From the NCBI GenBank assembly GCA_023055425.1, contig JALGPY010000003.1:55785891-55849890 (forward strand): 64,000 bases of DNA, given 5' to 3'. Of the stretch, positions 18,316 through 64,000 are shown one piece after another; the stretch's first letter is position 1; the number at the start of each line of letters is the position of its first letter. Source of the DNA: Linanthus parryae. Lineage: Eukaryota; Streptophyta; Magnoliopsida; Ericales; Polemoniaceae. The notes under the pieces are model-generated. The model was not told where the DNA came from. It searched no databases and worked only from the letters and a program-made list of their open reading frames with translations. Made by a program: the position numbers and the translations under genes.

Positions 18316-18377
18316 ATACTGAAGGAAAATATCAGGAATAGCTAACTTTTATATAGTTGGACAGTTAGTCACTCTAA

Positions 18378-19344
18378 GAGCATCTCCCACAGTTGACATC
18401 AAATTTTACACCAAATCCTATATTTGGTGGAGAAAAATGGTTTGGCCTCCCACAGTTAACCCTCAAAAACACCATTTCATCATTTTTGGTGGAAAAACAG
18501 AGCTTTTGGTCTCCCACAGTTTTCACCAAATTTTACATCAAATAGTTATTTCACCATTTCATCAAATTTAGAGAATGGTACTTTTGGCCTCCCACAACAA
18601 ATCATCAAATTTATCACCAAATCATGAATTTTATGACTATCAAAATAAAAAAAATATTTTATTACCTAAACAATATTACACGAAATTATAAAATGATTAA
18701 ATAACACTTGAAAAAATCTAAAATTAACCATTCTGATCTATTTGACCATGATTATCCCATATGTACAAGAAGATTACTAAAGTTCTTGAAGTTTAACATC
18801 AGTGTATTATGTTCGGCCAAACCCGTTGCAACTACATTAGTTATTTCATTTTATCATCCCGCAACATGATGCTGAAAATATTATGTAACACGGCAACACG
18901 CTATGGCTCAAAAGCATATTACACAAAGTGGGAGAAGAAAAACGGAAGGTGTATATACTATAAAGACGAAATGCTACACTATTACATTAGAGCATATTAT
19001 TACCATAAAAGTAATGTGAAAACATGCCCTAAACACTAATTAAAAATTTGGTGTAGATTACACCAAATCCTATTTTTGCCATCAAATTTGATGGTAAAAA
19101 TAGGATTTGGTGATATAGGATAGGATTTGAGGGTACTGTGGGAGATGCACTTCACCATTTCACAAAAGCTACACCAAATATAGGATTTGGTGATTTGGTG
19201 TTTTTTTGGTCAACGACTGTGGGAGGCCTACACAAAAATCACCATTTTTTTGGTGATTTGGTGATTTGATGATTTGTTGTGGGAGGCCGAAAACACCAAA
19301 TTTTACTATCAAATATAGGATTTGGTGCACTGTGGGAGATGCTC
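18378..19344. mobile_element. PIF/Harbinger-like non-autonomous element, unit 1 only
   Basis: The 967-bp insertion has perfect 16-bp terminal inverted repeats (GAGCATCTCCCACAGT) and a TAA duplication. Units 2, 3 and 4 preserve the empty site (CACTCTAAGAGAAGC), so the insertion is proven by comparison and post-dates amplification of this unit. An alternative reading (13-bp TIR with a 9-bp duplication CTCTAAGAG, Mutator-like) fits the same bases because the site is nearly palindromic. Many internal CTCCCACA and ATCACCAAAT motifs repeat in both directions. No transposase is present. Confidence 0.85.
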
Positions 19345-19503
19345 TAAGAGAAGCTAACGGGAACATTCTGATTAATGATCTACTTTCCTCTGAAGTGAAG
19401 CAAACTAACCTCGCCGCCATAAATCGATGCCCCATGTATATAGATTGTTGAAGTATCGAGAGTGATTCCGCCATAATCAATGCAAGGGATGAGGTTGCAG
19501 TTA

Positions 19504-19553
19504 GTCCCACATCAAAATAGTTGAGAAAAGAAGAAAGAGAAAGGAGTACATAA
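19504..19553 (+). promoter_or_regulatory. U1 promoter: USE and TATA-like box (unit 1)
   Basis: GTCCCACATCA (19504-19514) matches the plant snRNA upstream sequence element RTCCCACATCG with one change. TACATAAG begins at 19547, 32 bases after the USE and 31 bases before the U1 5' end. This spacing is the Pol II type for plant snRNA genes. The Harbinger insertion ends only about 160 bp upstream. Confidence 0.85.
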
Positions 19554-19577
19554 GGAAAGCATGGACGAATGAGTAAC

Positions 19578-19736
19578 ATACTTACCTGGACGGGGTCAAT
19601 GAGCGATCAAGTAGGCTCATGGCCTAGGTTGGTGACCGCCATTGCACTCGGGCGGGGCACTAGTTTAAGATCTACCCAAGTGGTGGAGTCTACGTCATAA
19701 TTTGTGGCAGAGGGGGCCTGCGTTCGCGCGGCCCCT
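19578..19736 (+). ncRNA. U1: U1 snRNA, unit 1
   Basis: The 159-base gene begins ATACTTACCTG, the exact 5'-splice-site pairing end of U1, and continues with the conserved GGCTCATGGCCTAGGTTGGTG stem-loop region, the Sm site (CATAATTTGTGG, about 19697) and the 3' stem with CCTGCGTTCGCGCGG. U1 snRNA pairs with 5' splice sites in the U1 snRNP. A USE and TATA-like box lie at the right places, and a weak 3' box (CAACTTCAATTTAAAA) follows. It is tail-to-tail with the U4 copy. It looks intact and is the copy closest to canonical at bases 13-18 (ACGGGG). Confidence 0.96.
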
Positions 19737-20199
19737 ATCAACTTCAATTTAAAATTTTATCTTGGTTCTCTCTTGGTGGTAGTTATTAAGCTACGAATTT
19801 TGGGAACGTGTTCACTGATTTTGGCCTATCACATATGAGGCTTCTATATGGTGGGTAATATTCTGTGGCTGGTTTAGTTTAGCTAAGTTTAATTAATTTT
19901 GCCGAGAAGAGATAGGCAGTGAGTTGATGGTACTTTGTTTTGTTTACGGCTTATATATATACAGTTTTGATCACTCATCTGTGTGTTTGTAGCACACCGC
20001 ACGCACCACAACAGTCTCTCCTGCTTCAGCATACCGCCACCTAAAATGACTGACAACTCTCTGGATGTCCAGCCACCTCCTATGCAGAGAGATTAGACGA
20101 GCCGCCACACAGTAGCAAGACAAGGACAGAGACTATAGATGTCTCTAGGACTGCTTTCGAGAAAACCAAAATAAATAAATTTGGACTAGGAGAGTAGTA

Positions 20200-20357
20200 G
20201 GGCTTTACCCTGGGTTAGAGGGAGCCCTTCCAGAAGTTATCGACGACCAAGGCAGAACGAAGGTCGAGGAGGGGTTTTGGAAAAAGTTTTCAACCAGCAA
20301 TTGACACGCCTCGGTTACTACCTCACCAGCTGCGTCATTGCCCCAAGCGCTAAGACA
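20200..20357 (-). ncRNA. U4: U4 snRNA-like gene, unit 1
   Basis: The minus strand reads TCTTAGCGCTTGGGGCAATG, then the 5' stem-loop with GAGG...CCGAGGCG, then TTGCTGGTTGAAAACTTTTT, which are the U6-pairing and 5' stem-loop regions of U4. A central hairpin and a 3' stem (GGGCT...AGCCC) follow. The expected Sm site (AATTTTTGG) is represented only by ATAACTTCTGG. A 3' box (AGTCCAAA) lies downstream, but no good USE is visible upstream; only a weak TATA-like CCTAAAC lies about 30 bases before the start. This copy differs from units 2-4 in the loop (GGTAGTAACC against GGTTATAACC). It may be a pseudogene or a diverged U4. Confidence 0.85.
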
Positions 20358-20505
20358 AAACTATCCAAACCTTCTTGTCTGGCAGGTTTAGGCTCTCATC
20401 CCTAGCGGGACTCTTTCTTTTGTACGCCTACTACTAATCAACTTTCGGGCTTCTTCCTCTGCAGTGCTGACCACCTGTAGAAAACTCAACTACCATCAAC
20501 TCAGC

Positions 20506-20645
20506 AATACGGTCGCGTAAGCCATAAAACAATTCTCTTGTAGTTGCATTTGCCACTGTAGTCATACATTTAACACCTACCCAGCAATACGGTCGCGTAA
20601 GCCATAAAACAATCCTCCTGTAGTTGCATTTGCCACTGTAGTCAT
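20506..20645. repeat. 65-bp local tandem duplication (unit 1)
   Basis: The block CAGCAATACGGTCGCGTAAG...GTAGTCATACA occurs twice in a row between U4 and U5. Units 2 and 3 have a single copy with a different 14-base repeat (CAATCCTCCTGTAG twice); unit 4 has a single plain copy. Confidence 0.9.
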
Positions 20646-20717
20646 ACACCGAGAACCACCATTGCTGCTGCAAGGACAACACACAAAGCACAGGAAAAAG
20701 TTTTTGAACTAATGACT

Positions 20718-20848
20718 GTAAGGACCAAACCCTTCAAGGGAAAGTCCTTCCAAAAATAGGCGTATGCCACTATTTGCAGCGAGCGCACGGTAATCTTTAG
20801 TAAAAGGCGAAAGAATAGTTCGCTTTGTGCTCACTGCGTGGCTGCGTG
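20718..20848 (-). ncRNA. U5: U5 snRNA, unit 1
   Basis: The minus strand contains the invariant U5 loop 1 (CGCCTTTTACTAAAGAT) that contacts exon ends during splicing. Flanking arms pair (GCAGTGAGCAC with GTGCGCTCGCTGC, and GCCAC with GTGGC). A perfect Sm site ATTTTTGG lies at 20750-20757, followed by the 3' hairpin AAGGACTTTCCC...GGTCCTT. A 3' box (CA, 6 bases, AGTTCAAA) follows. The 5' end is placed by the TATA distance and by the helix, so it is good to a few bases. The gene lies downstream of U2 in the same direction. Confidence 0.93.
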
Positions 20849-20875
20849 AGCAATCAAGTTGCAAGAGGAGCTCTT

Positions 20876-20927
20876 CTTATACTGCTATAGCAAAGGCATT
20901 TTCCTCGCGTCGTCGTCGGTGTGGGAT
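20876..20927 (-). promoter_or_regulatory. U5 promoter: USE and TATA box (unit 1)
   Basis: On the minus strand ATCCCACACCG (20917-20927) matches the USE with one change, and TATAAG (20876-20881) follows after 35 bases. The TATA box is about 30 bases before the inferred U5 start. The spacing is of the Pol II class. Confidence 0.85.
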
Positions 20928-20929
20928 TA

Positions 20930-22515
20930 GTGACTGCTGAGCATAAAGCAAGTACTACTACTACACAGGTTTCAACATTGCAGTGAAAGAAGAGAATACA
21001 GTCCTCCAGTATACATATCATGGTAGTAAAAGAATTCCTAACTAGATGTTACGAGACTGACGCAGCCAGCCAAGGGCTCGCTAATTCTTGATATTTCATG
21101 AGATTTCTGCAAGAAGGAATCTATAATAGTATTGTTCATTGCCGCAGCCAGCCAAGGGCTCTTTTATTATGGATTTTTCATGTTAAAAGTTGTCTCCCTT
21201 TCAGTCTTTCAAACTGAGCCGTTTCGGAAAACGGCACGGAGATTTACATCCGTATGAAAAAAAATTATCACCAAAATTTACATGACATTTTATTTTGACT
21301 TGATCAAACTTCACGTCACTTTTGGGGTTATTCATTTGCGAAAACAGTAAAAATGAAAAAGTGGGTGTTTAATTGGGCCAACTAGCCAGACAATGCGGCC
21401 CAGGAGTGCACCGGCCCGTTATCCTTCCACTGCCAAGAGAGGGAGGTGGTCGTTGCTCTGTGAAACCAGCCTCACGCAGTGCCCTCCGCTCTAGGGGAAT
21501 TGCAGCCCACGCCTTCGCGCAAGCCACAAGACCCAACTCCCAGCTTGGAACGGGCAGGCCAGATGAAGCAGGCCCACTGAGCCTGTATGGCTAAGTCAAC
21601 CCACTATCCACCAACAGTAATGCCCTCACTCGAGTTACAAGCCCACGTTACAAGGCTCGGCGTTGGTTAAGCACTAATCGTGCAATTATTAACAAGAATT
21701 AGTGTTGGTAAAGAGAGAGTGTGGTCCGTTGAGATGAGTAGTATCCCATAGATCTATTTTGGCTGAAGGAAGAAACTATGGTCCCATTCTTGGGTTCTGG
21801 TATTATACACCCCAAGTCTAGAGACCACCCACCCAACTATGAATTTCACAGGCACTTTCACCTGGCCGTCGGAGCCGTGAGTTGCCAACTCCTGCAATCA
21901 GTGAAGCTGCCATTCTCTGCTGGAAAAAGTTGCTAAGAGTCGGTAACATTTTCATAGTAGTAGTACGTGTTTTGATAAACGAAACAAATTTTTTTTTTTG
22001 ACTTGCACACAGATCAAGAGCTAAATGATGAGAGCATCTTCTTCTATCTTGGAAGCTGAGATGACTAGCTAAATCAAATTATTCGGTGGAAGATGGTGAT
22101 GATGATTCTATTCACTGGTCTTATTAGTGGCATCTCCTATATATGTGGACGTCACCATAGAGGTCTGGTGCAACTGCACGGGGTAGCCTTGAGCTGCCGC
22201 CAAGTAGAGGAGGATTTGGTGGTGCCACGAGAGTACCCCCCTGGAGGGAGGGGACCAGTGAATTGGCCTTGGCTATTCTCTGCAAGTATATGCATGTGAA
22301 TGTCTATTATGCCGTTGGCTATTCTCTGCAATGTATATGCATGTGAATGTCTATTATGCCGTTTAGCAACAAATATTCTTGTGCTCAACAGTCTAGTCTT
22401 CTTCATGAAGACTTGCTCTTGGAAATGAATTCCTCCATGTAGGAGGGTTCTCTTCTAATCAAATGTATGAGCCACAACCCGACCCCGAGACACAACATTA
22501 AACTAAGTATTGGGT
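20930..22515. other. spacer between U5 and U2 (unit 1)
   Basis: No gene is supported. It contains two copies of GCAGCCAGCCAAGGGCTC (about 21063 and 21145), a GC-rich stretch (21373-21600) and a 50-bp tandem repeat (GGCTATTCTCTGCAA...ATTATGCCGTT, about 22268-22360). Parts are missing in unit 3 (about 158 bp) and unit 4 (about 580 bp), so they are dispensable for the array. Confidence 0.6.
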
Positions 22516-22711
22516 GGGGTGCGCCTGGCCCTTGCAGTAGTGCAACACATGGGCGACACTTGAGGAGCCCCAATAGCAAGCTACTGTGATGAGCCCCTCC
22601 CCCTCAAAAAATAAATTTAATATCGTGTGAGCCGATGGCCCACATATCAGATATTAAACTGATTAGAACAGATACTACACTTGATCTTAGCCAAAAGGCC
22701 GAGAAAGGTAT
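22516..22711 (-). ncRNA. U2: U2 snRNA, unit 1
   Basis: The 196-base gene reads ATACCTTTCTCGGCCTTTTG at its 5' end on the minus strand, then the branch-site pairing region GTGTAGTATCTG (complement at 22669-22680), stem IIa/b sequence, the Sm region TTTATTTTTTGAG and the long 3' stem-loops ending GGCGCACCCCACC. U2 pairs with the intron branch point. One base differs from the canonical stem II (GTTCTAATCAG, where the usual form is GTTCTTATCAG). A match to the plant 3' box, CA(N)6AGTTTAA, lies at 22498-22513. Promoter elements are listed separately. It looks functional. Confidence 0.96.
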
Positions 22712-22737
22712 GATCTTCCAACCCTTGGGCTGGCCAT

Positions 22738-22789
22738 TTTATACTCCGTCCTTTTTCTTGTGTTTATTCAACTCTACTGATGTGGGAAC
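22738..22789 (-). promoter_or_regulatory. U2 promoter: USE and TATA box (unit 1)
   Basis: TTCCCACATCA (22778-22788, minus strand) is the USE, and TATAAA (22738-22743) is the TATA box. They are separated by 34 bases, and the TATA starts 32 bases before the U2 5' end, the Pol II arrangement. Confidence 0.9.
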
Positions 22790-24094
22790 GTTTCCCACTT
22801 GCTGTTTTATTTCCTTCTTTGCATTCCCTTCACACCAGCACCCAATCCCACTTGCTGCTGCTGTTATATAATTTTGTCTTGGATGAATCCTCCTCTTCTT
22901 ACTTCCTCCACCCACCTGACATTAAGCTAAAAGATGCATGCGTCCCGTTCTTTATTCCTTTCTCCTCAATACAAACAAAAACACTTCCTATTCATCGTGA
23001 TTGGAGCCTCTACCGCTTAGCTTCTACCTTACTCTCATTCTTCACTTCGCTAACAACAAAACCACCAATGTCTTTCATTCTTATTCACTTTTTGGTTTCC
23101 CAAATTCATATACCATTCGTCATTGCTCGTCTCCTCAACAGATAACACAAACATCTCACATTTAAAATTGATACATTTTTTTTTCTTTTAAATGTTGTTG
23201 GCATTATCAACACGCCAGGCCCCAGGTGTGTTAGTAGTCAACTATCGTATTCGTAATAGAAATTAGTAAATCCATGCACATTACATTAACAAACAAATTT
23301 AATACACAATAAAGTTTTGGTCCCATCCGATTTTTAGCCCATCCGATTTTCAGTCGGTTACTCGATTTTTGTCCGGTTCGGTAAGGGCCCGGTTCGATTT
23401 TACCAAAAGAAACACTGCACGTTTATTTAAAGTTGAAAAGAACCGACGGTTCGGTACGGTTTGGTTTAGTGCGGTCCGGTCCCGTCGGTTCATGCACACC
23501 CCTATCTGTTGGGCTGTAATATGCAAATAGTGACAAAAATGGGTGTTCCCTTAAATTAGGACATGTTAAGATGACCTTGAGGATACTTGAGATGTTGGCT
23601 GGCCTAGCTTGACTATAGGGGTTTTCTTTAAATTGGTGAAAACCTGAGGGGCTTAACTGCTATTCTGGGAAAAAGACAATTTCTCTTAACTTTGATCAAA
23701 CTTCACGCCACTTTTGGACACTTCTCTTGGTACTGAAAATCTATACCAATAACATGTCTTCTTCAAGGATCAAAGATTCAAGGTTGCCCTCTCTTGGTCT
23801 TGAAATCTATACCAATAACCATGTCTTCTTCAAGAATCAAAGATTCAGAGTTGTTCTATGAGGCCTGCTGCAATATCGGTATCAATTCGACCTCCAATAA
23901 ACGTTCCCAACTTCTAGGCATGGTGATGAGAGGAATCAACTGAGGGAACTCTTACTCTTCTATGCCCAAAATCTGTCAGAACAAACCTTTTGTGAATTCA
24001 AATATCCAATCCACTGCAAACAACACCATATAATTATGATTAATTTGTTCCCTTCCCTAGAAGAGATCTAATCCAAACTTGACTTAGAATTGGT
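22790..24094. other. spacer between U2 and the U1-like gene (unit 1)
   Basis: No gene is supported. There is a CGGTT-rich stretch (about 23316-23490) and an imperfect direct repeat of about 65 bp (CTCTTGGT...CTATACCAATAAC...TCAAGGATCAAAGATTCA, 23722-23850). Confidence 0.55.
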
Positions 24095-24253
24095 AGGCGC
24101 CGCGCGAACGCATGCCCCCTCTGCCACAAATTATGGCGTAGACTTCACCACTTAGGTAGATCTCCGGCTAGTGGCTTTCCTCAGTGCAATGGAGGTCACC
24201 AACCTAGGCCTTGAGCCTTCTTGATCACTCATTGACCCCGTCCAGGTAAGTAT
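24095..24253 (-). ncRNA. diverged U1-like snRNA gene, unit 1
   Basis: The minus strand starts ATACTTACCTGGACGGGG and keeps the stem-loop I sequence, the Sm region (CCATAATTTGTGG) and the 3' stem. The middle (GCACTGAGGAAAGCCACTAG) differs strongly from the plus-strand U1 copies, and the 3' stem has changes (GGCATGCG, GGCGCC). The USE is altered (GCCCCACAGCG, 24304-24314) and lies only 19 bases before TACATAAT (24277-24284), against 32 in the main U1 genes. It is either a decaying copy or a regulatory variant. Confidence 0.85.
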
Positions 24254-25140
24254 ATTGCTCAATCATCTATGCATTCATTATGTAGTCCTTTTTCTTTCTT
24301 TTTCGCTGTGGGGCTAACTGCAACCTCATTGCCTGGTTTGACTACAATCGCATCTATGAACACAAGTTCTATCTGTAGAAATATTAGAATTTGCGTGCTC
24401 CTTGCAATGCAGGTGAACTCTTTTTTTGTACCCACTCGAGAATTATCCGGGTGTAAGCTCGAAAACTTCCTAAAAAACAATGTTTAAACCACTCTTAATC
24501 AACAAACTGAAAGAGCAAATACCACTCTTCTACATAACCATGGGAAACATTAACTGATTTGTGTGAAACACATTATGAGGAAGGCTTTAGTGAAGATTAC
24601 AATATCCACACGACAAATCGTAACCCGCACTTATGCTACCTGAAATTGCCTAGATCCGTAGAATGAGAATGTCGTGGAGGACCTCGATACCTTACTGAAT
24701 TTCATAATATTGGGATACACTTGTGACGATGTCTTGATAAGAATCTATTCATCTTTGAGAAGCCACCAGACTCCCAATATGCAACATATTTACAGTTTAA
24801 CTCTGGGAACACGTGAATTTTAACATACTAAACTTTATGTTTTCGTTTCACTAGGGAGACAATAGGGAGGGAACATCTCTCAGGTCACCAAATTCACCAA
24901 TCAAAACTAATTAGAACGGCATAAACATACGTATTGGAAACTGTACTTACCTCATATGCATCCAAGACTTTGCATGTTGAATGTGGACGGGGAGGGCATC
25001 AGTTGGAGGCATTCCATAAAGTGAAAGAACAAAAAACCAGGGTAGCATCATTTTTTGCAGATAATTAGACCCTTACTTGGTTTCATGTTCACTGATTATA
25101 AACAATGATATAATTAAACTTTAATTAATACTCACGAACC
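24254..25140. other. spacer right of the U1-like gene (unit 1)
   Basis: Apart from the U1-like promoter (24277-24314), no gene or clear repeat is seen. Confidence 0.5.
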
Positions 25141-25146
25141 TCATCA

Positions 25147-25243
25147 TTTTTTTTAGACTTACCAATTCTGTCACCTAACGAGTTCGAACCCAAGACCTCA
25201 TGCACGGACTTTTAAACGCTCTACCAATTGAGCTAGCCCCCGT
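25147..25243 (-). mobile_element. tRNA-derived SINE fragment (unit 1)
   Basis: The minus strand has a box A-like TAGCTCAATTGGTAGAGC and a box B GGTTCGAACTC (25180-25190) at tRNA-like spacing, and ends in an A-rich tail (TCTAAAAAAAAT). The acceptor arms do not pair, so it is not a working tRNA but the head of a SINE. Unit 2 has the same copy at 38325-38421. Confidence 0.65.
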
Positions 25244-25282
25244 TTGCTAACCTTATACCCTTTTGATAAAGAAAAATTAATT

Positions 25283-25770
25283 TGGGTGATGGACACTAAA
25301 CCTACATGCTAAATGCATTATGGGACACAAACCCCATGCACTTTCAAGTTCCCACTACAACCCCCTGCAATATACATTGGTAGGACATATAACCTCCTGC
25401 ATTTTCAGGTTTCCACTAAAACCCCTGCAATATCCATCTGTGGGACATTTTACACCAAATTGACAACGGGATTAAAACATTTAACAAAAAATCATCACGT
25501 GCTAGCTCTGTGGATAAAGAAAAACAACTTCAAAGACCATCGCGTGATTAGCACGTGGTCAATTTCCGTTAAAAGATTAACATTCGTTATCAATTTGGGG
25601 TTAAGAGACTCACATATATATTGCAGGGGGTTTCAGCAAAAAATTGGTATGCATGGGGGTTATGTGTCCCAAAGATGTATATTACAGGGTGTTGTGGTGG
25701 AAACTGAAAGTGCATTGGGGTTTTGTGTCCCAAAATGCATTTTGCATGTAGGTTTGGTGTTTATTACCCA
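25283..25770. mobile_element. long-TIR MITE (unit 1)
   Basis: The first about 95 bases (GGGTGATGGACACTAAACC...) are nearly the reverse complement of the last about 95 bases (...GGTTTGGTGTTTATTACCCA). Both sides are flanked by the direct repeat TTTTGATAAAGAAAAA[T/C]TAA. The 156-codon frame inside at 25313-25783 merely reads through these inverted repeats and is not a gene. Confidence 0.75.
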
Positions 25771-26369
25771 ATTATTTTTTTGATAAAGAAAAACTAAAAG
25801 TGTAATATATGTCATCAACAAGATTTTGAACTTTGTTAAAGTTTGTATCCAAAATGAGAATTGCCACTAAAAAATAAAATGGAACTTATTGAAATTATAC
25901 ACTAAACTATGTAATTTCATTAATCACGATTATCTTCAAAAAAAAATTCCAACTATAAAACACGGGGGCCCTGCCGCCCTGGGTCTAAAGTAGCCGTTTC
26001 GGCTGCCGGCCATGATGACAGACCTGAGCTTCAGACTTGTGAAGCCAGGTTAATTTCACCCCCCCCCCAAACAAAGCTCAGCTCATGGTTTACATGCCTG
26101 TATTTGACACATACACGAGCAATGATATCACTCTATTGATGATGAAACTCCCACTGCAACTGGCATTAAGTAGCATATGAGTGATGTACTCCCTTATCTA
26201 ATCCAACTCAATTTAGACAGTTGTTGGGCGCATTATAGTATTTTACATTCGCGAGACCTTATATATCATTTGGAGTAAATTAATGTGTCAAATCATGCAC
26301 TCACCTACTACTTCACATATGATTGGCGCTAAAATAATATTTAGCTACTTACAAGGAACTTATAATCTT

Positions 26370-26647
26370 GGTATGTGTTATCCATCCAATTCTATAGATG
26401 GTCAAGCATGCTGGTGTATATTGCGCTGGTAACTCGTCACGCATAAGAGTTACTACTGGCTTTGTGGTCTAATTAGTACCAATCTCATACACTGTGGAGC
26501 AAAAAAAGTAGGTACCAGCAGCAAGATCTTCTATAGAAGATGCATTTAGAGCTCTTTCTACAACTGCAGCTACAATTCCATGGTCTAAGACGCTATTCAA
26601 AGAATTGTGTCTTTTCCTTCACAATCCACCGACATTTTTTATGATAA
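26370..26647 (+). pseudogene. Ty1-copia RNase H relic B (unit 1)
   Basis: Translation gives, with stops, the copia RNase H series: TTGFVV, a WSAKKQ-like run (VEQKK), ARSSIEDAFRALSTTAAT and YDNV, corresponding to RSSTEAEYRAL...CDN in intact elements. It stops abruptly at 26647, where a TGTAACACCC sequence begins. The same relic is at 39547-39824 in unit 2. Confidence 0.7.
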
Positions 26648-27060
26648 TGTAACACCCTGAATTTTTTTAGTGTACAATAATTCAAACTTTTTGGGTCATA
26701 GTGCAAATACAATTTTCTATTTCCCCAGTTAAGTAAAAATTGGATAATGACCATAGGCTAATAAGGGGTGATGATGTAATATTGTAGAAGTGGTGGGGCA
26801 AAATAGAATTATCAAAAATCTTAGAGGTCACTGTGTAATTATTCCTCATTCAGTACCAGCTCATCTCTTGGAAAAATGAAGTTTCAAAAATGGCACAGAT
26901 CAAATTATAATTAATATAATTTCAGCGGGTTAAAATAAAATTTAATGAAAACAAAACATTCCAACAAGTATCCTAAAATTTCGTATAACTACACGTACCC
27001 ACCCCGCCCCCATGTGAACACAAACTTGCATAAACATTATAAACACTAGACACCTCAACC
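26648..27060 (+). mobile_element. possible Ty3-gypsy LTR fragment (unit 1)
   Basis: TGTAACACCCTGAATTTTTT is a typical start of a plant gypsy LTR, and it interrupts the copia relic. A TATAAAC near 27039-27045 with a downstream C/A-rich leader would fit an LTR promoter. No CA end or target duplication was found, so extent and class are uncertain. Confidence 0.35.
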
Positions 27061-29662: not shown

Positions 29663-29667
29663 AGACA

Positions 29668-30024
29668 TGATACAGGATAGTATCGTTATTGTTTAGTTAT
29701 TTAGTTACTTATTAGTTAATCAGTTATTGGTCATTTTATTTAATATTTAAACGATACTTACAGTATCGAGATAGGAAGAATTGGACAGATTCAGAGGAGA
29801 AGAAATGAAGAATTTAGGAGGAAGTGATTGAGAGATTCACGAGAATAAGAATTGAGAACAAGAATTGAACTGATTTCCATTGACTGAATAATAATGCTTG
29901 AGTACATTGCTTAGCCTAACCCTAGACTCTTACAGGCTAAGCCAGGATCAATTTAAATATTAAATAAAATGACTAATAACTGATTAACTAATAAATAACT
30001 AAATAATAATAATATCTCGTATCA
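29668..30024. mobile_element. solo LTR with 5-bp target duplication (unit 1)
   Basis: The 357-bp sequence begins TGATAC and ends GTATCA, with AGACA before it and AGACG after it; in unit 2 both flanks are AGACG (42840-42844 and 43202-43206). TG...CA ends and a 5-bp duplication define a solo LTR left after recombination. Its interior resembles the LTR pair at 31972-32661. Confidence 0.8.
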
Positions 30025-30449
30025 AGACGTCTCATAAAAGGTCTGGTGGGGAATTGAAAGAATTGTCTGGCATTCAAAGGCATTTAACTCAAACCGGAGA
30101 TCTAATGATTGGGGAAAAGGATTAGTGACTCTTAGGATCTCGTGGCGCATTCAGGATGTCGATACGGACATCACAACGTTGGGTTAAATTCAGTACAGTT
30201 CTTAGGGCATAGTATATCATTAGGGACGTGTAAGTAAAATCTAGAAAGGAGTCGGTAATAAGCAGAGCCTGAGACCAAGAGCATATCATAAATCCGCACA
30301 GGTACGTATAGGGCTCCTTACGTTAACTATAAATTAAAGATTTAATTTTTTGTAAGAATTGTTGTAACTTTAAAAATAAATATTTGAAAATTAAAATTGT
30401 ATTTGCATATGTAATGAGTGAAATATAAGGTTTGCAAATAAAACTAAAA

Positions 30450-31965: not shown

Positions 31966-31971
31966 GCAGTT

Positions 31972-45142: not shown

Positions 45143-45148
45143 GCAGTT

Positions 45149-50324: not shown

Positions 50325-50326
50325 GG

Positions 50327-54600: not shown

Positions 54601-55445
54601 TCAGTACGGCCTTCCACCCAGCCACAGACGGACAGACGGAGAGAACTATACAGACGTTGGAAGATATGTTAAGAGCCTGCGTTATGGACTTCCAAGGCTC
54701 ATGGGTCGATAAGCTGCCGTTAATAGAGTTCTTCTACAACAATAGTTACCACGCTAGCATCGGGATGGCACCGTACGAAGCCGTCTATGGAAGAAAGTGT
54801 CGATCTCCACTATGTTGGAGTGACATCAGCGAAACGGTGATCATTGGCCCACAAATGATTGAAGACATGACGAACCAAGTTCGACTCATACAGCAGAGGA
54901 TGAAAGCAGCTCAAGACAGGCAGAAGTCATACGCAGATCAGAAGAGAAGACCACTGGAGTTTCAAGTAGGAGAGAAAGCTTTCTTGCGAGTCTCACCTAC
55001 TAAGGGAGTAACCAGGTTTAACTTGAAAGGGAAGTTAAGCCCTAAATTCATTGGTCCATACGATGTTATTGAAAAGATAGGAGAAGTTGCGTATCAACTG
55101 GACCTACCATCGAATCTAGGGCGAGTACACAATGTCTTCCACGTATCCCAGCTGGAGAAGTATATACCAGACCCGTCTCATATCTTGGACCCAGAACCAG
55201 TGGATTTTGATCCATCACTGACCTACGAGGAGCAACCTATCAAGATATTGGATACAAAGACAAGGGATACGAGAACCAAGAGTGTCAAACTGGTCAAAGT
55301 TCTCTGGACCAACCATCAAACAGAAGAAGCAACTTGGGAAGCTGAAGAAGAGATGAGAAAGAAGTACCCACACCTATTTATTGAGGTACGTGGAGTTCCG
55401 GGGACGTCACTCTCTAAGGGGGAGAGGATGCAACCCTTTGTTTAA
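51583..55445 (+). CDS. pol: gypsy Pol polyprotein with chromodomain
   Basis: The frame is open from the end of gag to 55445 (an internal Met at 51660 gives 1261 residues). Order: second zinc knuckle, a long Asn/Gln/Gly-rich linker, protease ([10 protein letters not shown], about 52045), reverse transcriptase ([30 protein letters not shown]), RNase H ([28 protein letters not shown]), integrase with HHCC finger (CLTCQR) and catalytic acids in [16 protein letters not shown] and GQTERTIQ, then the C-terminal chromodomain ([16 protein letters not shown], about 55300). The RT box reads FIDD, normal for gypsy. No stop or frameshift was seen, so the enzymes may be functional. Confidence 0.95.
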
Positions 55446-55746
55446 TACTATTATGCCCTAGTCTGCTATTTTAGTACCTTTGAGATTTAAATTGACCTTG
55501 AGACTTAGAACCCAAATGAGACTATGACCACCTAATTAGATAGACGTGACTACGACCTTATTTGACTTCACTTGTTGCATTGCGTATGTCGTAAAATGAT
55601 TACTTGCTATTATTTGTTATGTGAAGTTACTTGCCATCCATGTGATATAAATTCTGTTAGACAGTTACTTGTTAGATGATTTGAATATTAGGATTAGCCG
55701 GTTGATTTTAACTTCGAGGACGAAGCTGTGTTTAAGGGGGGAAGGA
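55446..55746 (+). other. gypsy 3' untranslated region and polypurine tract
   Basis: A short noncoding stretch ends in AAGGGGGGAAGGA (about 55733-55745), the polypurine tract directly before the 3' LTR. Confidence 0.8.
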
Positions 55747-58700
55747 TGTAATACCCCGTTTATCTAGCAGGGGTAAAACAGTCATTTTACGAAGCATAAT
55801 AATAATTTATTAGCAAAATAATATTTTTAATAAATCTTTGAGTTTAATTTGTAAGAAGAATATTAGAGTAATAGTTAATAATTAATTCGTAGTTGTTTTG
55901 CAAATTTTAGTTAGTTTTAATTTATAGCGCGTGTCCAACTACCGCGATAATTGCTAGACTTGCCACACCCAATCACCCAACCACATAAATACACCACCCA
56001 CACCCAATTATTACCAACAAATATTAGTTAAATTGGAAACTTTTGTTCCCAGCAAGCTACTCATCTTCTTCTCCAATACGTTTCTTCACCATCATCACCA
56101 CCACCTTCAGGAAGCTACTAGCACCGCCTATGTCACATCACTTGTGCTTGGAGCCCAAGTAATCTCAACTATATAAGCAGCTGATCAGTCCCTCCTCCCA
56201 CCAGCAGCCACTCACAACAACCACCACCTCCCTCATCATCATCGTCATCTTCAACACCACCATCACCACTTACAGCTCCCTCCTCCCACTCTGTCCAGCC
56301 ACCATCTTCTCCACCCCTGTTGCTCTCTGACCTCAGAAATCACCAGCAGCAGAGCCCAGCCGTGGTGGCAGCAGCCAACCACCACCACCGTCGCCATAGC
56401 CACCGGCGAGAAAACCCAGTGAAGGAACACCCACTGCCTCCACCCTCATCACTCTCTTTCTCTCCCTCCCTCTCTGTTCTCAGGTCTCAGCAGAATAGAG
56501 TAGCGGCAGTAGCAGCAGCTACCGCAGCCACCGTTGCCACCGTCGGGCAACCACCAAAGAAAACCCACTTCTCTCTCTCTCATCCCCGCTGCCTTGCCCG
56601 AGCTCCCTGACCGATTGTGGGCTCATCCCCGACCTGAGCAGATCCCAAGGAAGCAGCAGCAGCAGCAGAAGCCACTGCAACCACCGGCGACCTCCATTGT
56701 TGCCGGCCAAGCTCCGGCCAAATTCCGGCGAGTGCTTCGTAGCAGCACCCAGTCCACTTTTCCGCTTCCAGTAGAGTCCTAGGAGGCCGACCAGCTCACT
56801 AGGAGCCTCAAACCAGGCTGTGGAAGCCATTAAAGCCGGCGACGAAGGTCCAACTCCGGCGACCCCGACGCCAAGCTTCGACCCGACCCATTTCTTAGCG
56901 ATTTCCGGCCATTTTTGGCCTAGGTACGTCCTATACCTTCTGATTAGTTGTTATATGTTGCTAAAATTGAAGTTTGATAGCTTGAATCAAAGTAGGATTG
57001 AAGAAATTAAAGTTGTTGAAGAAGGGGGGTAAAAGTGTAGTTTATGCAAACTGTTAAAACATGGCTTAGGGGTGCTGTTTGTAATTTCAGAAACTGTATG
57101 GGCTGTTAGTATACTATATTAATCTTGTTTTGATGGCTAGTTGAGGAATTTGTAGACTTTTAATACGATTGGGGGTTTATGTGTATTTAACTTAAACTTG
57201 TCACTTTTCGCTAAAAATAAAAAATATATTTCGGAATAAAAAATAATTTTTAAAAATACTATTTTTCATCCTCGTTTTGGAAAAGTAATTTTGGTATTAA
57301 AATAGCATGCGGGTTGTTCGTTAAAAATTAAATAAGAAATATTTTTAGTTAAACTTTGAATAAATATTGTTAAATAAATTGGATGCTTAATAATTGCAAA
57401 TTTGATATTTTGATAGATTTTAAATATTGTTTTGTTGTGATTAGTATTTAGGGAAAATTTATCTTTAAATTAAATAGTTTTGAATATTGTAGAAATACTA
57501 ATATGTCTTTTTTTTCATAAGATAAACTAGTTTTGTTTTCGCTACTTTATCAAGTATTTTATAAAATAATTTCTCTAATTAGTTAGGCACTTTTAGTCAA
57601 TAATAATAATAATAGTTGTCTAAATATAAAAACGTGGTTTTATCATCTATACTAGAAGATTTTAACAAAATAAAACGTTAGGGAAAATAAATAACTAGAG
57701 GGGTTGGGTAGTAATGAAAGAGAATACTTAAGACGTGTAGTATTTTGTTGGATTATTTGTTAACGTAAAAGTTACGGGTTGTAGGTGACGGTTTGTAGGC
57801 CGAGACATTTCTAGAACGTGCTAGTGCTACGGAAGTAAGGTAAGTAACATGCCAAGCGTTGAGCCTAGCTTCCTTCGTGTCTTAATATGACTTTATTTCT
57901 TGTCTCAAAATGCATTTTTATTTGACTATTCATTTACTTGTTTTATTTGAAGTTCCCTTTTATTTCAAAGAAGTTATTTATTTGAACTTGTCACACGATT
58001 AATAATAATACGTAATTAACGTAAAGTGGAAAGAGTTGTGCGGGAGAAGCAATTTATTATTGTCGTGTTGACTTCAGTCACTCGACCAGAGATCAGATTT
58101 TATTTTAACCCGGTCGCAACCTGCCGGGTCGCTCCATGTACTCACCTCTCTGGCCGCAAGAAGTCTTAGGGGGCTTCCGGCTGTTAAGGTCATGGTTGCT
58201 AGTGATAGATTAGTAGTTCCTTCCCCGTATCAACAAGGCTAATAATACAGTTTTGGCATGAGCTTTGAAAGAAAATAAGAAGAGATTGAGGAAGATAATA
58301 CCTGTTTGGAAGAGATAATAAGACAAGAAGAAAATTTTATAAAAGGGTCCCTACTTTACTTATGAAGTTCTTTCTTTACAAGTTTTATTCCTCCTGTTTT
58401 ATTATTGCAAAAAGTAAAGCTTCATCTTCTGTTTTACATGTTTGGGTGTTGTTTACTCAGCATTTCACAGCTGACTTTAGAAACTGCGGTTCTGTTTTCC
58501 TTCCCACCGCAGGCTTAGATGCAGAAGGCTATGGCGCAGCTGGGTACGGGACTCACGTGTAGTTTTAGTTGGCAAGCATGATGATGTATAGCTTTTGAAA
58601 TCACTTATGTAATGTTTAGTGACTTTCATGACGCTTAATGTTGTTTAATAAATAAATAATGTTGGAGTGTTATGTTTTGATTCCCGCCGTCACTTTTAGC

Positions 58701-58762
58701 ATCGGCCCCTCCCGGGCTTTCCGGTCCGGAACGGAAGGCTTGGGAAACCGCGGGCTGTTGCA
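55747..58762 (+). repeat. gypsy 3' LTR, full length
   Basis: It begins TGTAATACCCC and ends GTTGCA, 3016 bp. Its U3 part contains a CCACCA-rich tract and a 96-codon Pro/His-rich frame (56320-56610) on a low-complexity stretch, probably not a gene. The following GTACGTCC near 56924 may be a splice donor. No target duplication can be checked because the left flank is lost. Confidence 0.92.
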
Positions 58763-60206
58763 TAATGATTGGGGAAAAGGATTAGTGACTCTTAGGATCT
58801 CGTGGCGCATTGAGGATGTCGATACGGACATCACAACGTTGGGTTAAATTCAGTGCAGTTCTTAGGGCATAGTATATCATTAGGGACGTGTAAGTAAAAT
58901 CTAGAAAGGAGTCGGTAATTAGCAGAGCCTGAGATCAAGAGCATATCATAAATCCGCACAAGTACGTATAGTGCTCCTTACGTTAACTATAAATTAAATA
59001 TTTAATTTTTTTTAAGAATTGTTGTAACTTTAAAAATAAATATATGAAAAATTAAAATTGTATTTGCATATGTAATGAGTGAAATATAAGGTTTGCAAAT
59101 AAAACTAAAATCCTATATTATACTCTAGCATGGCTTATTTTTTGATAGAATCTAACACCGATTCACAAAAATAGATAAATATGTAATATTCAAAATTTAT
59201 ACCTTTTTCTATGAGAAAGAGAAATAATTGATTGTTTAAAATAAAAATCAAGTGAATAACGGCAAAATATTATTTATCTATTAAAAACTAATAATTCATG
59301 TTTTCATTACATTATTTAGTAATTAACATTTGTTCTTAAAAGACAAGAATGTTTGTCTCAATAGCTCTTCAGATTATTTAAAGAAATCATCAAACATATA
59401 AAATTTATAGATATACGCAATGTAACTGTTGTATCAATTTGCGTCTGATTCCTGTTTAGTCAGTCCACAAAGTAATACACTAATTATAAGCTAGTCTTCT
59501 TCGAGGTCATGTTTCCGTGCATCGCACGGATTCAAAACTAGTACTAATACTAGTGTAAATTATCAAGTGTAGCTAAATGCCTTAAAAATGGACAGTTAGT
59601 CTCTCTAACAGAAGCTACATAATCATTGCTATGTAAAACACCGTCGTATATATCAAATTTTCTTATCTTGAACTATGAAATAATCTACTATTGTATTGAT
59701 TCATATTTTTACTAAGTAGACTCGTTTGCTGGGGCCCGGATCGTGTTCCTAGGGCTATGTTTCCGCATTTAATACTTGACTTCTGATTCATGCTACATGC
59801 TTAATAGATAATTTTAAGTTTATGTTCTATGTTTTGATAATTTTGCTTCATGGCATACGGGATTCGAGTCGATGCGAATCAAATTAGGTGTTAGTAATTC
59901 ACCGATGAAAGACAGGATTTTGCTATCTAGAATGATGGGTTAGAACAACAACCCGTATCAATAACCGAAAATAAAGTAGAGATCGTTAGGTGTGACCTAG
60001 GGTAGAGAGTTTGGTTAGATTAAGCTAGATGACCTAAGAAAAGAAGGGATCTAGTTACTCTAAATAGAAAACATGTTTGTTGAAGAAAAGTAGGGTTCAC
60101 AAGCTATAATCGATTAGAAATAGATGGATCATCGTGTTTCAGTGATCATTAATCAAACAGAAGCATCCCTAGTGTTCCAACGAGGAGTCCTCGTGTTCTT
60201 TTTACC

Positions 60207-60628
60207 AATGGGTTATGTGTTTATGGGGGTGAAAATCTAATTTTATGGTGCTCTAAGAAATAAGATTCAGTGGCCTGATATAGTATTGAAGTTGAATAAA
60301 GAGCCCTAGCAGTCACAACTTCCACACTAAGGTGGTTGAAACTTCTTGGTCCACGATTTAGGAATTGTCTCGAATCCTGCAACTTCATATGGTCTGACAA
60401 CTTTTCTGCTACGGCTTTAGCTGCTAAGCATGTGTTAAATGCCAGTACCAAGAACAAAGAGATTTGAGTATCACTTTGCCAGGGCGATGGTGGTGTCTAA
60501 GTTGCTGAATATGTACAAAGTTCTTAACGCATGACAAATTGTAGATACTTCCACCGAAGATTTATCTTCTCAGCAACATAAACCACTTTGTAGCAAGCTG
60601 AAGTTGCAGTATATTCATGCCGCTACCC
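60207..60628 (+). pseudogene. Ty1-copia RNase H relic A (unit 3)
   Basis: Third copy of the relic, with additional damage (a one-base insertion near 60464 and a TGA near 60532). This makes it the most decayed of the three. Confidence 0.8.
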
Positions 60629-60634
60629 GCAGTT

Positions 60635-61327
60635 TGTTACCGTAAAGGTAACGGGGTTGACGATTTTGCGAAAATAGACAAAACTTGACCACGTAGCTTT
60701 TAGCCTACGACGCTTTTCCTAACAACTACTATTGACCGAACAAAGATTTCATTCAATAATCAATTCATTCGATGAAAATAATCAAACACTACAACTTGTT
60801 TAAATAAGCAAAACAAAACCCTAACCCTAGACTTTTACGGGCTTGACAAGGCCCGATTATTATTTAACTAAATAATTAACTTAAATAACTAATTAACTCT
60901 AAATAAACAATTCAATAAACTATACTGATAATCATAATAATAATGTTGACTTCTACGATAAGGCTGACCTGTATCAACACCAATTTGTTACCGTAAAGGT
61001 AACGGGGTTGACGATTTTGTGAAAATCGACAAAACTTGACCACGTAGCTTTTAGCCTATGGCGCTTTTCCTAACAACTACTATTGACCGAACAAAAAAAT
61101 TTCTCAATATTCAATTCATGCGATGAAAATAATCAAGCACTACAACTTGTTTAAATAAGCAAAACAAAACCCTAACCCTAGACTTCTACGGGCTTGACAA
61201 GGCCCGATTATTATTTAACTAAATAATTAACTTAAATAACTAATTAACTCTAAATAAACAATTCAATAAACTATACTAATAATCATAATAATAATGTTGA
61301 CTTCAACGATACGGCTGACCCGTATCA
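60635..61327 (+). mobile_element. LTR pair with 9-bp interior (unit 3)
   Basis: Two LTRs starting TGTTACCGTAAAGGTAACGGG, separated by ACACCAATT as in units 1 and 2. The right target copy has one change (AAGTT). Confidence 0.8.
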
Positions 61328-61735
61328 AAGTTCAAGATGAAGGAGAGTACAGATCATGTTAGTCACTTCATGGTTTTAGTTGTGTAGTATTGGTTTTGCA
61401 CAAGTGTCAGTAGTGTAGTTATAGTAGGTGTAGTTTTGAGGTCATACTGAAGGAAATTATCAGGAATAGCTAACTTTTATATAGTTGGACAGTTAGTCAC
61501 TCTAAGAGAAGCTAACGGGAACATTCTGATTAATGATCTACTTTCCTCTGAAGTGAAGCAAACTAACCTCGCAGCCATAAATCGATGCCCCATGTATATA
61601 GATTGTTGAAGTATCGAGAGTGATTCCGCCATAATCAATGCAAGGGATGAGGTTGCAGTTAGTCCCACATCAAAATAGTTGAGAAAAGAAGAAAGAGAAA
61701 GGAGTACATAAGGAAAGCATGGACGAATGAGTAAC

Positions 61736-61894
61736 ATACTTACCTGGATGGGGTCAACGAGTGATCAAGTAGGCTCATGGCCTAGGTTGGTGACCGCCAT
61801 TGCACTCGGGTGGGGCACTAGCTTAAGATCTACCCAAGTGGTGGAGTCTACGTCATAATTTGTGGCAGAGGGGGCCTGCGTTCGCGCGGCCCCT
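61736..61894 (+). ncRNA. U1: U1 snRNA, unit 4
   Basis: Intact ATACTTACCTG end, Sm site and 3' stem. It differs from unit 1 at base 14 (ATGGGG) and near base 23 (CAACGAG), and in the third stem (GGGTGGGGC). USE 61662-61672, TATA-like box from about 61705. The flanking sequence has the longer U1-U4 spacer also seen in unit 1. Confidence 0.94.
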
Positions 61895-62357
61895 ATCAAC
61901 TTCAATTTAAAATTTTATCTTGGTTCTCTCTTGGTGGTAGTTATTAAGCTACGAATTTTGGGAACGTGTTCACTGATTTTGGCCTATCACATATGAGGCT
62001 TCTATATGGTGGGTAATATTCTGTGGCTGGTTTAGTTTAGCTAAGTTTAATTAATTTTGCCGAGAAGAGATAGGCAGTGAGTTGATGGTACTTTGTTTTG
62101 TTTACGGCTTATATATATACAGTTTTGATCACTCATCTGTGTGTTTGTAGCACACCGCACGCACCACAACAGTCTCTCCTGCTTCAGCATACCGCAACCT
62201 AAAATGACTGACAACTCTCTGGATGTCCAGCCACCTCCTATGCAGAGAGATTAGACGAGCCGCCACACAGTAGCAAGACAAGGACAGAGACTATAGATGT
62301 CTCTAGGACTGCTTTCGAGAAAACCAAAATAAATAAATTTGGACTAGGAGAGTAGTA

Positions 62358-62514
62358 GGGCTTACCCTGGGTTAGAGGGAGCCCTTCCAGAAGTTATCGA
62401 CGACCAAGGCAGAACGAAGGTCGAGGAGGGGTTTTGGAAATAGTTTTCAACCAGCAATTGACACGCCTCGGTTATAACCTCACTAGCTGCGTCATTGCCC
62501 CAAGCGCTAAGACA
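62358..62514 (-). ncRNA. U4: U4 snRNA-like gene, unit 4
   Basis: It matches units 2 and 3 in the 5' domain (GAGGTTATAACCGAGG, AAAACTATTTCC) and unit 1 at the Sm position (ATAACTTCTGG). One T is missing in the 3' stem loop. No clear USE. Confidence 0.85.
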
Positions 62515-62794
62515 AAACTATCCAAACCTTCTTGTCTGGCAGGTTTAGGCTCTCATCCGTAGCGGGACTCTTTCTTTTGTACGCCTACTACTAATCAACT
62601 TTCGGGCTTCTTCCTCTGCGGTGCTGACCACCTGTAGAAAACTCAACTACCATCAACTCAGCAATACGGTCGCGTAAGCCATAAAACAATCCTCCTGTAG
62701 TTGCATTTGCCACTGTAGTCATACACCGAGAACCACCATTGCTGCTGCAAGGACAACACACAAAACACAGGAAAAAGTTTTTGAACTAATGACT

Positions 62795-62925
62795 GTAAGG
62801 ACCAAACCCTTCAAGGGAAAGTCCTTCCAAAAATAGGCGTATGCCACTACTAGCAGCGAGCGCACGGTATTCTTTAGTAAAAGGCGAAAGAATAGTTCGC
62901 TTTGTGCTCACTGCGTGGCTGCGTG
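62795..62925 (-). ncRNA. U5: U5 snRNA, unit 4
   Basis: Loop 1, Sm site (62827-62834) and 3' hairpin are intact; two bases differ near the lower stem (GCTAGTAGTGGC, where other units have GCAAATAGTGGC). USE 62994-63004; TATA 62953-62958. Confidence 0.93.
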
Positions 62926-63004
62926 AGCAATCAAGTTGCAAGAGGAGCTCTTCTTATACTGCTATAGCAAAGGCATTTTCCTCGCGTCGTCGTCGGTGTG
63001 GGAT

Positions 63005-64000
63005 TAGTGACTGCTGAGCATAAAGCAAGTACTACTACTACACAGGTTTCAACATTGCAGTGAAAGAAGAGAATACAGTCCTCCAGTATACATATCATGG
63101 TAGTAAAAGAATTCCTAACTAGATGTTACGAAACTGACGCAGCCAGCCAAGGGCTCGCTAATTCTTGATATTTCATGAGATTTCTGCAAGAAGGAATCTA
63201 TACTAGTATTGTTCATTGCCGCAGCCAGCCAAGGGCTCTTTTATTATTGATTTTTCATGTTAAAAGTTGTCTCCCTTTCAGTCTTTCTTGGGTTCTGGTA
63301 TTATACACCCCAAGTCTAGAGACCACCCACCCAACTATGAATTTCACAGGCACTTTCACCTGGCCGTCGGAGCCGTGAGTTGCCAACTCCTGCAATCAGT
63401 GAAGCTGCCATTCTCTGCTGGAAAAAGTTGCTAAGAGTCGGTAACATTTTCATAGTAGTAGTACTTGTTTTGATAAACGAAACATTTTTTTTTTTTTGAC
63501 TTGCACACAGATCAAGAGCTAAATGATGAGAGCATCTTCTTCTATCTTGGAAGCTGAGATGACTAGCTAAATCAAATTATTCGGTGGAAGATGGTGATGA
63601 TGATTCTATTCACTGGTCTTATTAGTGGTATCTCCTATATATGTGGACGTCACCATAGAGGTCTGGTGCAACTGCACGGGGTAGCCTTGAGCTGCCGCCA
63701 AGTAGAGGAGGATTTGGTGGCGCCACGAGAGTACCCCCCCGTGGAGGGAGGGAGGGGACCAGTGAATTGGCCTTGGCTATTCTCTGCAATGTATATGCAT
63801 GTGAATGTCTATTATGCCGTTTAGCAACAAATATTCTTGTGCTCAACAGTCTAGTCTTCTTCATGAAGACTTGCTCTTGGAAATGAATTCCTCCATGTAG
63901 GAGGGTTCTCTTCTGATCAAATGTATGAGCCACAACCCGACCCGAGTATCAACATTAAACTAAACTCTTCCAATCAAATGTAGGAGCCACAACCCGACAC
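63005..64000. other. spacer right of U5 (unit 4), running off the window
   Basis: About 580 bp present in unit 1 (21210-21790) is deleted at 63286, with the joint at TCTTTC/TTGGG. The end of the window has the same duplicated ATGTAGGAGCCACAACCCGACAC motif as unit 3, which lies just before U2, so a U2 gene or remnant is expected immediately beyond 64000. Confidence 0.75.

What the first reader, a model, noticed from the sequence alone, without database searches (positions are those of the whole stretch)
18316..64000. Tandem array in which one ~13-kb unit carries U1, U4, U5 and U2 snRNA genes together
The sequence shows U1(+), U4(-), U5(-), U2(-) and a U1-like gene(-) in each complete unit, repeated three to four times in 45 kb. 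Plant snRNA genes are usually dispersed or in small U1-U4 or U2-U5 pairs, as far as I recall; a single amplified unit holding four of the five major spliceosomal snRNAs would allow their dosage to change together. U6, a Pol III gene, is the only one absent.
Basis: partly seen in the sequence, partly recalled or inferred. Interest (0 to 1): 0.92.

Follow-up and report, generated by a model that had tools for sequence, protein, structure and literature searches.

The report
Plant mixed snRNA–SRP RNA gene array
A plant chromosome carries four tandem copies, two of them complete, of a roughly 13-kb block that packs U1, U4, U5 and U2 splicing-RNA genes together with a signal-recognition-particle RNA gene; U1, U5 and U2 have control signals predicted to make them active, while the U4 and signal-recognition-particle copies are likely dead.

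Summary
The array is real. Covariance models find U1, U4, U5, U2 and a second U1 in units 1 and 2; the left edge is at ~18,316. No U6 was found. 'Four snRNAs dosed together' is only partly supported: U1a, U5 and U2 have USE and TATA at Pol II spacing, an Sm site and a 3' box (one mismatch in U1a), but U4 has no USE, TATA or intact Sm site in four of four copies, SRP lacks a USE, and U1b has a shortened promoter. Gene positions are no more conserved between units than spacers (15/431 against 20/1115). Best reading: a young, unevenly decaying tandem amplification of a merged plant snRNA cluster, still a predicted source of U1, U5 and U2. No plant cluster with more than two types turned up in my paper searches.

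The parts
18316..32777 (.). unit 1 (left edge of the array; contains a MITE)
   Evidence: shared left-edge sequence at 18318, 32780, 45957, 61446
32778..45954 (.). unit 2, 13,177 bp, all six genes
45955..61443 (.). unit 3, interrupted by a Ty3/gypsy element with a flanking deletion
61444..64000 (.). unit 4, cut by the window end; SRP segment absent
18378..19344 (.). MITE in unit 1, inverted ends, TAA target duplication, empty site in units 2-4
   Evidence: sequences printed
19578..19737 (+). U1a snRNA gene, unit 1
   Evidence: RF00003 140.2 bits; USE at 19504, 32 bp before TATA
33070..33229 (+). U1a, unit 2
   Evidence: 136.9 bits; two G to A changes in helix I, one of which breaks a pair
46247..46406 (+). 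U1a, unit 3
   Evidence: 136.9 bits; same two changes
61736..61895 (+). U1a, unit 4
   Evidence: 137.5 bits
20201..20356 (-). U4 copy, unit 1, predicted pseudogene
   Evidence: 83.4 bits; no USE/TATA; Sm site AACTTCTGG
33469..33624 (-). U4 copy, unit 2, predicted pseudogene
   Evidence: 89.4 bits
46646..46801 (-). U4 copy, unit 3, predicted pseudogene
   Evidence: 89.4 bits
62359..62513 (-). U4 copy, unit 4, predicted pseudogene
   Evidence: 89.3 bits
20728..20843 (-). U5 snRNA gene, unit 1
   Evidence: 89.2 bits; USE at 20917-20927, full 3' box
33930..34045 (-). U5, unit 2
   Evidence: 92.5 bits
47107..47222 (-). U5, unit 3
   Evidence: 92.5 bits
62805..62920 (-). U5, unit 4
   Evidence: 90.0 bits
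21357..21661 (-). plant SRP (7SL) RNA copy, unit 1, full length, no USE
   Evidence: RF01855 237.2 bits
34551..34855 (-). plant SRP RNA copy, unit 2, full length, no USE
   Evidence: 238.7 bits
47736..47886 (-). SRP RNA remnant, unit 3, internal deletion
   Evidence: 53.8 bits, below gathering 105
22514..22711 (-). U2 snRNA gene, unit 1
   Evidence: RF00004 160 bits; TATAAAA, USE core, full 3' box
35690..35887 (-). U2, unit 2
   Evidence: 160 bits
48756..48795 (-). U2 remnant in unit 3 (last ~40 nt only; 35 nt exact at 48761-48795)
24093..24253 (-). U1b copy, unit 1, shortened promoter
   Evidence: 122.1 bits; USE-TATA gap 19 bp
37271..37431 (-). U1b copy, unit 2
   Evidence: 122.1 bits
48830..58762 (+). 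Ty3/gypsy LTR element, LTRs 99.1% alike, 5' LTR probably truncated (not proved); left junction has filler matching the U2 3' end and the SRP-U2 spacer

Best explanation
A plant chromosome carries a tandem array of ~13-kb units whose 4.4-4.7-kb core, in the two complete units, packs U1, U4, U5, SRP (7SL) RNA, U2 and a second U1 gene, and it likely grew by unequal crossing-over of a merged snRNA cluster of which only the first U1, the U5 and the U2 genes are predicted to be transcribed. Shown: the genes, their order, the four units, the structural differences between units, and promoter signals at 32-35 bp USE-TATA spacing in U1a, U5 and U2 (the plant Pol II class; the spacing values are recalled from Waibel and Filipowicz 1990, of which I saw only titles in reference lists). 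Inferred: RNA polymerase II makes U1a, U5 and U2 from their own promoters and the 3' box directs their 3' ends; U4 (no promoter, damaged Sm site), SRP (no USE) and U1b (shortened promoter) make little or no working RNA; copies are exchanged between units by crossing-over and conversion, so the array adds U1, U5 and U2 copies unevenly, not a balanced set of four. That the host is a plant rests on the neighbouring receptor-kinase gene, whose listed named relatives are flowering plants, and on the Plant_SRP match.
For: Rfam hits for six genes in units 1 and 2. All 8 matches to the USE with at most one mismatch in the 64-kb window lie upstream of the four U1a and four U5 genes. USE-TATA gaps 32 (U1a), 35 (U5), 34 (U2, exact TATAAAA) and 3' box exact in U5 and U2, one mismatch in U1a (consensus from PMC545797, passages, and PMC5079582, passages). 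U4: best USE 3-4 mismatches, a level that 9-51% of shuffles also reach, TATA candidates with 3 mismatches, no canonical Sm site in 4 of 4 copies; putting the consensus letters in the first ten bases of U4 improves the computed U4/U6 pairing from -40.8 to -44.7 kcal/mol (U6 from memory). SRP: best USE 4 mismatches within 300 bp. Units related in patches: 10 of 20 variable spacer sites in the U1a-U5 region group units 1+4 against 2+3, while units 1 and 2 are twins from U5 onward. Different lesions per unit.
Against: No expression data could be examined. Arabidopsis U4-10, U6-7 and U2-16 also lack a USE and were called possibly active (PMC545797), so USE loss alone does not prove death. U4 keeps a perfect AGTNNAA core of the 3' box, without the CA, and a foldable 3' hairpin. 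SRP keeps TATA-like sequences with two mismatches near -30 and a run of five T at its 3' end, both compatible with Pol III use. At up to two mismatches the 24 USE matches in the window are not clearly above chance (mean 17.5; 8 of 100 shuffles reach 24), so the U2 and U1b elements rest on position and spacing. U1a copies in units 2 and 3 carry a change that breaks a helix I pair (for unit 2; same letters in unit 3), and all four U1a copies differ from the consensus in loop I, so some 'active' copies may be dead. Units beyond the window could not be counted.
Confidence: 0.62

Rival explanations
1. Working dosage module: all four snRNA types in the unit are expressed and selection keeps them together so that their amounts change in step.
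For: Four types in one unit, U1, U4 and U5 in four copies; promoter elements of U1a and U5 present in 4 of 4 units.
Against: U4 promoterless and Sm-defective in 4 of 4 units; gene positions vary at least as much as spacers, 15/431 against 20/1115, Fisher p = 0.056 in the direction of genes varying more; gene numbers already unequal.
Confidence: 0.1
2. Silent relic: a dead or silenced amplification from which no snRNA is made; the cell's snRNAs come from other loci.
For: No sign of constraint on genes; transposon insertions in units 1 and 3, SRP lost or truncated in two of four units; helix I pair broken in U1a of unit 2 (unit 3 has the same letters).
Against: USE, TATA and spacing present in 4 of 4 U1a and 4 of 4 U5, with one variable site in the 100 bp before U1a. 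U2 is identical in its two copies, 0 of 198 sites, but only about 0.6 changes would be expected at the spacer rate, so this has little weight.
Confidence: 0.22
3. Assembly artefact: repeated units are haplotypes or a mis-joined duplicate.
For: Units 1 and 2 are about 99.3% alike; only this one assembly was seen and raw reads were not available.
Against: Four units with patchwork relationships and separate lesions (MITE only in unit 1, gypsy element and SRP deletion in unit 3, a different SRP loss in unit 4).
Confidence: 0.06

Closest known systems
Arabidopsis U1-U4 and U2-U5 snRNA gene clusters (Wang and Brendel 2004, PMC545797; passages seen)
   Same: Plant snRNA genes of different types side by side, with USE and TATA and the plant 3' box; some copies without USE.
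   Different: Two types per cluster there, U1 and U4 180-300 nt apart with U1 upstream of U4, U2 and U5 fewer than 200 nt apart; here U1a and U4 converge, U5 and U2 join the same core with SRP RNA, and the whole unit is tandemly repeated.
Symbiodinium minutum snRNA cluster (PMC4083563; passages seen)
   Same: Many snRNA types in one cluster; the review says all five occur in a cluster.
   Different: Dinoflagellate, includes U6; no repeated ~13-kb unit described in the passages seen. [quoted passage not shown]
Fish snRNA arrays: U2-U5, and U1-U2-U5 with 5S rDNA in sole (PMC3464664, PMC4696792; passages seen)
   Same: Linked tandem snRNA genes of different types; degenerate snRNA copies in a hake spacer.
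   Different: Fish promoter elements (PSE), units of about 1 kb in the two fish described, no U4 and no SRP RNA in the fish units described in the passages seen.
Contaminant contigs found here: L003/L004 (plant-type U2 and U1) and L001 (U2, U1, 5S rRNA and histone genes)
   Same: Mixed small-RNA gene linkage.
   Different: Two snRNA types each; no tandem unit shown; hosts not named beyond MAG titles.

Membership tests
Plant Pol II snRNA gene: U1a | USE, TATA at Pol II spacing, Sm site, 3' box | tested here: met
   USE one mismatch and 32-bp gap in 4 of 4, TATA and 3' box with one mismatch each; AATTTGTGG checked by script in unit 1 and visible in all four printed copies
Plant Pol II snRNA gene: U5 | USE, TATA at Pol II spacing, Sm site, 3' box | tested here: met
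   USE one mismatch, TATA one mismatch and 35-bp gap in 4 of 4, exact 3' box; ATTTTTGG checked in unit 1 and visible in all four
Plant Pol II snRNA gene: U2 | USE, TATA at Pol II spacing, Sm site, 3' box | tested here: met
   USE with two mismatches but core TCCCACATC exact, TATAAAA, 34-bp gap, exact 3' box in 2 of 2 full copies; Sm checked in unit 1
Plant Pol II snRNA gene: U4 | USE and TATA | tested here: not met
   0 of 4 copies; best USE 3-4 mismatches, reached by 9-51% of shuffles
Plant Pol II snRNA gene: U4 | Sm site | tested here: not met
   No canonical Sm site in 4 of 4
Plant Pol II snRNA gene: U4 | U6-pairing stem II | tested here: inconclusive
Plant Pol II snRNA gene: U1b | USE-TATA spacing of ~32-35 bp | tested here: not met
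   19 bp in 2 of 2 copies; USE two mismatches
Plant SRP RNA gene | Covariance-model match over the full length | tested here: met
   237-239 bits over 1-305 in units 1 and 2; unit 3 deleted, unit 4 absent
Plant SRP RNA gene | Upstream USE (requirement recalled; my one search for it, listed no paper on it) | tested here: not met
   Best USE 4 mismatches within 300 bp; TATA-like with two mismatches near -30
Two-type plant snRNA cluster (U1-U4 or U2-U5) | Only two snRNA types, within hundreds of bp | tested here: not met
   Four types plus SRP RNA in 4,676 bp in unit 1
Any snRNA gene | Expressed, capped, in snRNPs | not testable with these tools
   No RNA data available

The most novel reading that the evidence does not exclude
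The first flowering-plant super-cluster of spliceosomal RNA genes: four of the five major snRNAs and the SRP RNA fused into one tandemly amplified unit, homogenised between units by crossing-over, acting as a live, copy-number-variable source of U1, U5 and U2 while U4 and SRP passengers decay, so that natural unit-number variation shifts the ratio of U1/U2/U5 to U4 in the spliceosome.
Probability: 0.22. Interest if true: 0.7.

Novelty: new variant of a known kind. Interest (0 to 1): 0.46.

Why it matters
In the sources I could see, plant snRNA genes are dispersed or in two-type pairs; a tandem unit with four types plus SRP RNA shows that genes normally read by different RNA polymerases can merge into one cluster and amplify in a plant, as mixed snRNA clusters do in fish and dinoflagellates. 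Because units carry private variants and private lesions, the locus offers a natural test of which snRNA copies a plant really uses and whether array size changes snRNA ratios.

Tried and rejected
Chance: rejected; covariance-model E-values above the gathering score run from 4e-14 to 1.2e-69. A microRNA reading of the weak mir matches: rejected, all far below gathering scores; the mir-548, mir-3119 and mir-559 matches lie in the MITE. Organism: the neighbouring ZAR1-like receptor kinase is at best 78% identical to Camellia and Actinidia proteins, then Sarracenia, Cornus, Ilex (120 of 6523 hits listed), so probably an asterid, perhaps Ericales; the retrotransposon search (120 of 7934 hits listed) reached at most 81%, to an unnamed protein, and did not help. 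Whole-genome counts of units, U6 and other snRNA loci: not obtained, because the genome search did not complete. Plant snRNA comparators: one U2 pattern sought in viral contigs (0 found) and in GTDB contigs (4 stretches from 3 contigs). Papers: in the listings of 10 searches and in 8 papers opened (passages of seven; outline of PMC10886601) I saw no plant unit with more than two snRNA types; most listed papers were seen as title and start of abstract only, and subscription papers are mostly not held. Decay by cytosine methylation was considered because some gene variants are C/T at CpG (sites), but the numbers are too small.
Full report
The observation. A covariance-model scan of the 64-kb window gives 18 matches above gathering score: four U1 on the plus strand, two U1 on the minus strand, four U4, four U5, two U2 and two plant SRP (7SL) RNAs; a looser scan adds one deleted SRP copy and weak microRNA matches, and no U6. 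In units 1 and 2 the order is U1a(+), U4(-), U5(-), SRP(-), U2(-), U1b(-), within 4,676 bp in unit 1.

The repeat. Self-comparison gives 99.36% identity over 13,981 aligned bases between 20,610-34,577 and 33,812-47,763. The same left-edge sequence (one base different in unit 1) starts at 18318, 32780, 45957 and 61446, so four units begin in the window, and units 2 and 3 start 13,177 bp apart. The edge of unit 1 was hidden from the first comparison by a 967-bp MITE at 18,378-19,344 with inverted ends and a TAA target duplication; units 2-4 have the empty site.

Units differ. Unit 1: MITE. Unit 3: SRP with an internal deletion (151 bases left of 305) and a Ty3/gypsy element (gag, protease, RT, RNase H, integrase, weak chromodomain match) at 48,830-58,762 whose LTRs differ by 10 mismatches and 3 gap positions in 1,495 aligned columns. 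The right flank of the element continues the unit at the equivalent of 43,280 in unit 2, whereas the left flank stops inside U2, so ~7.5 kb is gone, including U1b and all but ~40 nt of U2; the left junction holds short filler matching the U2 3' end and the SRP-U2 spacer. The 5' LTR is probably truncated there, but I did not establish the true LTR start. That looks like a deletion repaired by end joining after the element landed (inference). Unit 4: a stretch of about 580 bp with the SRP gene is absent, with a TTC microhomology at the junction; deletion is more likely than a missing insertion, but this was not proved. Unit 4 runs off the window before U2.

Relations between units are patchy. 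In the 4-unit alignment of the U1a-U5 region 10 of 20 variable spacer sites group units 1+4 against 2+3, while from U5 onward units 1 and 2 are twins (39 mismatches in 12,459 aligned bases), and the stretch of units 3 and 4 next to U2 is 99.6% alike. This fits crossing-over and conversion between units (inference).

Which genes look alive. [quoted passage not shown] PMC5079582, passages). USE-TATA spacing sets the polymerase (Waibel and Filipowicz 1990, seen only as titles in reference lists; values recalled). In the whole window 8 matches to the USE have at most one mismatch, and all 8 lie upstream of the 4 U1a and 4 U5 genes; of 16 further matches with two mismatches 4 lie upstream of U2 and U1b and 12 elsewhere, and the total of 24 is not clearly above chance. 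Gaps from USE to TATA are 32 (U1a), 35 (U5), 34 (U2); U1b has 19. U5 and U2 have an exact 3' box, U1a and U1b one mismatch. Sm sites are canonical in the unit 1 copies of U1a, U5, U2 and U1b. U4 has no USE beyond shuffle level, no TATA, no canonical Sm site in 4 of 4 copies, and a 3' box core without the CA. Its computed pairing with U6 is -40.8 kcal/mol in unit 2 and -44.7 if the first ten bases are given consensus letters; the Rfam consensus itself gives -52.6 but also differs elsewhere (U6 from memory). SRP has no USE within 300 bp, but TATA-like sequences with two mismatches near -30 and a run of five T at its end. So U1a, U5 and U2 are predicted active, U4, SRP and U1b predicted inactive or weak. 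Against this, USE-less Arabidopsis copies were left as possibly active by their authors.

Results against function. Among four units, 15 of 431 gene columns and 20 of 1,115 spacer columns vary (gap columns dropped; Fisher p = 0.056, genes more variable). Between units 1 and 2, 5 of 780 gene positions differ (SRP 4 of 305, U5 1 of 116, U2 0 of 198, U1b 0 of 161) against 35 of 11,634 spacer positions. U1a in units 2 and 3 has two G to A changes in helix I, one of which breaks a pair, and all four U1a copies differ from the Rfam consensus at one loop I position. There is no sign of purifying selection on array copies, which speaks against a selected dosage module.

Comparison. Arabidopsis has seven U1-U4 clusters and one U2-U5 cluster. 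[quoted passage not shown] Fish have U2-U5 arrays, and U1-U2-U5 with 5S in sole. I saw no plant tandem unit with four types plus SRP RNA in the listings of 10 paper searches, most of whose papers were seen as title and start of abstract only. Among comparators fetched here, a contig filed under a Trichormus MAG (held as L003 and L004; how the two stretches join was not resolved) holds plant-type U2 and U1, about 1.3 kb apart in L003, with USE-like (two mismatches) and TATA signals, and a contig filed under a bacterial MAG holds U2, U1, 5S and histone genes. The U1 of the former scores 131.2 bits, below the 136.9-140.2 of U1a and above the 122.1 of U1b.

Verdict. A real, young, decaying tandem array of a merged snRNA-SRP cluster in a plant, probably an asterid; new variant of a known kind; interest moderate.

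Noticed in passing
   Followed up: yes
window 48788-48832: Junction of truncated U2 and the gypsy element with filler matching two nearby places, a likely end-joining scar.
   Followed up: partly
window 12606-17679: Copia element with short (~148-bp) terminal repeats, 93% alike, and gag, integrase and RT frames.
   Followed up: partly
window 2179-6592: ZAR1-like LRR receptor kinase gene in at least two exons left of the array; best listed relatives in Camellia, Sarracenia, Ilex, Actinidia and Cornus.
   Followed up: partly
window 31970-32661, 45147-45838, 60633-61328: 347-351-bp tandem duplication in the spacer before U1a of the next unit.
   Followed up: no
window 9838-9883: Run of 46 C; possible assembly or sequencing oddity.
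   Followed up: no
L001 (5,648 bp, filed as a bacterial MAG): Eukaryote contig with U2, U1, 5S rRNA and histone genes together: a contaminant and a composite repeat candidate.
   Followed up: partly
L003 and L004 (one contig filed as a Trichormus MAG): Plant-type U2 and U1 with USE-like and TATA signals in a cyanobacterial MAG; plant contamination, perhaps of a host fern (guess from the MAG name).
   Followed up: partly
window 19578-19737 and the other U1a copies: All four U1a copies have U at a loop I position where the Rfam consensus has A; U1b has the consensus loop but non-standard pairs in stem IV.
   Followed up: no
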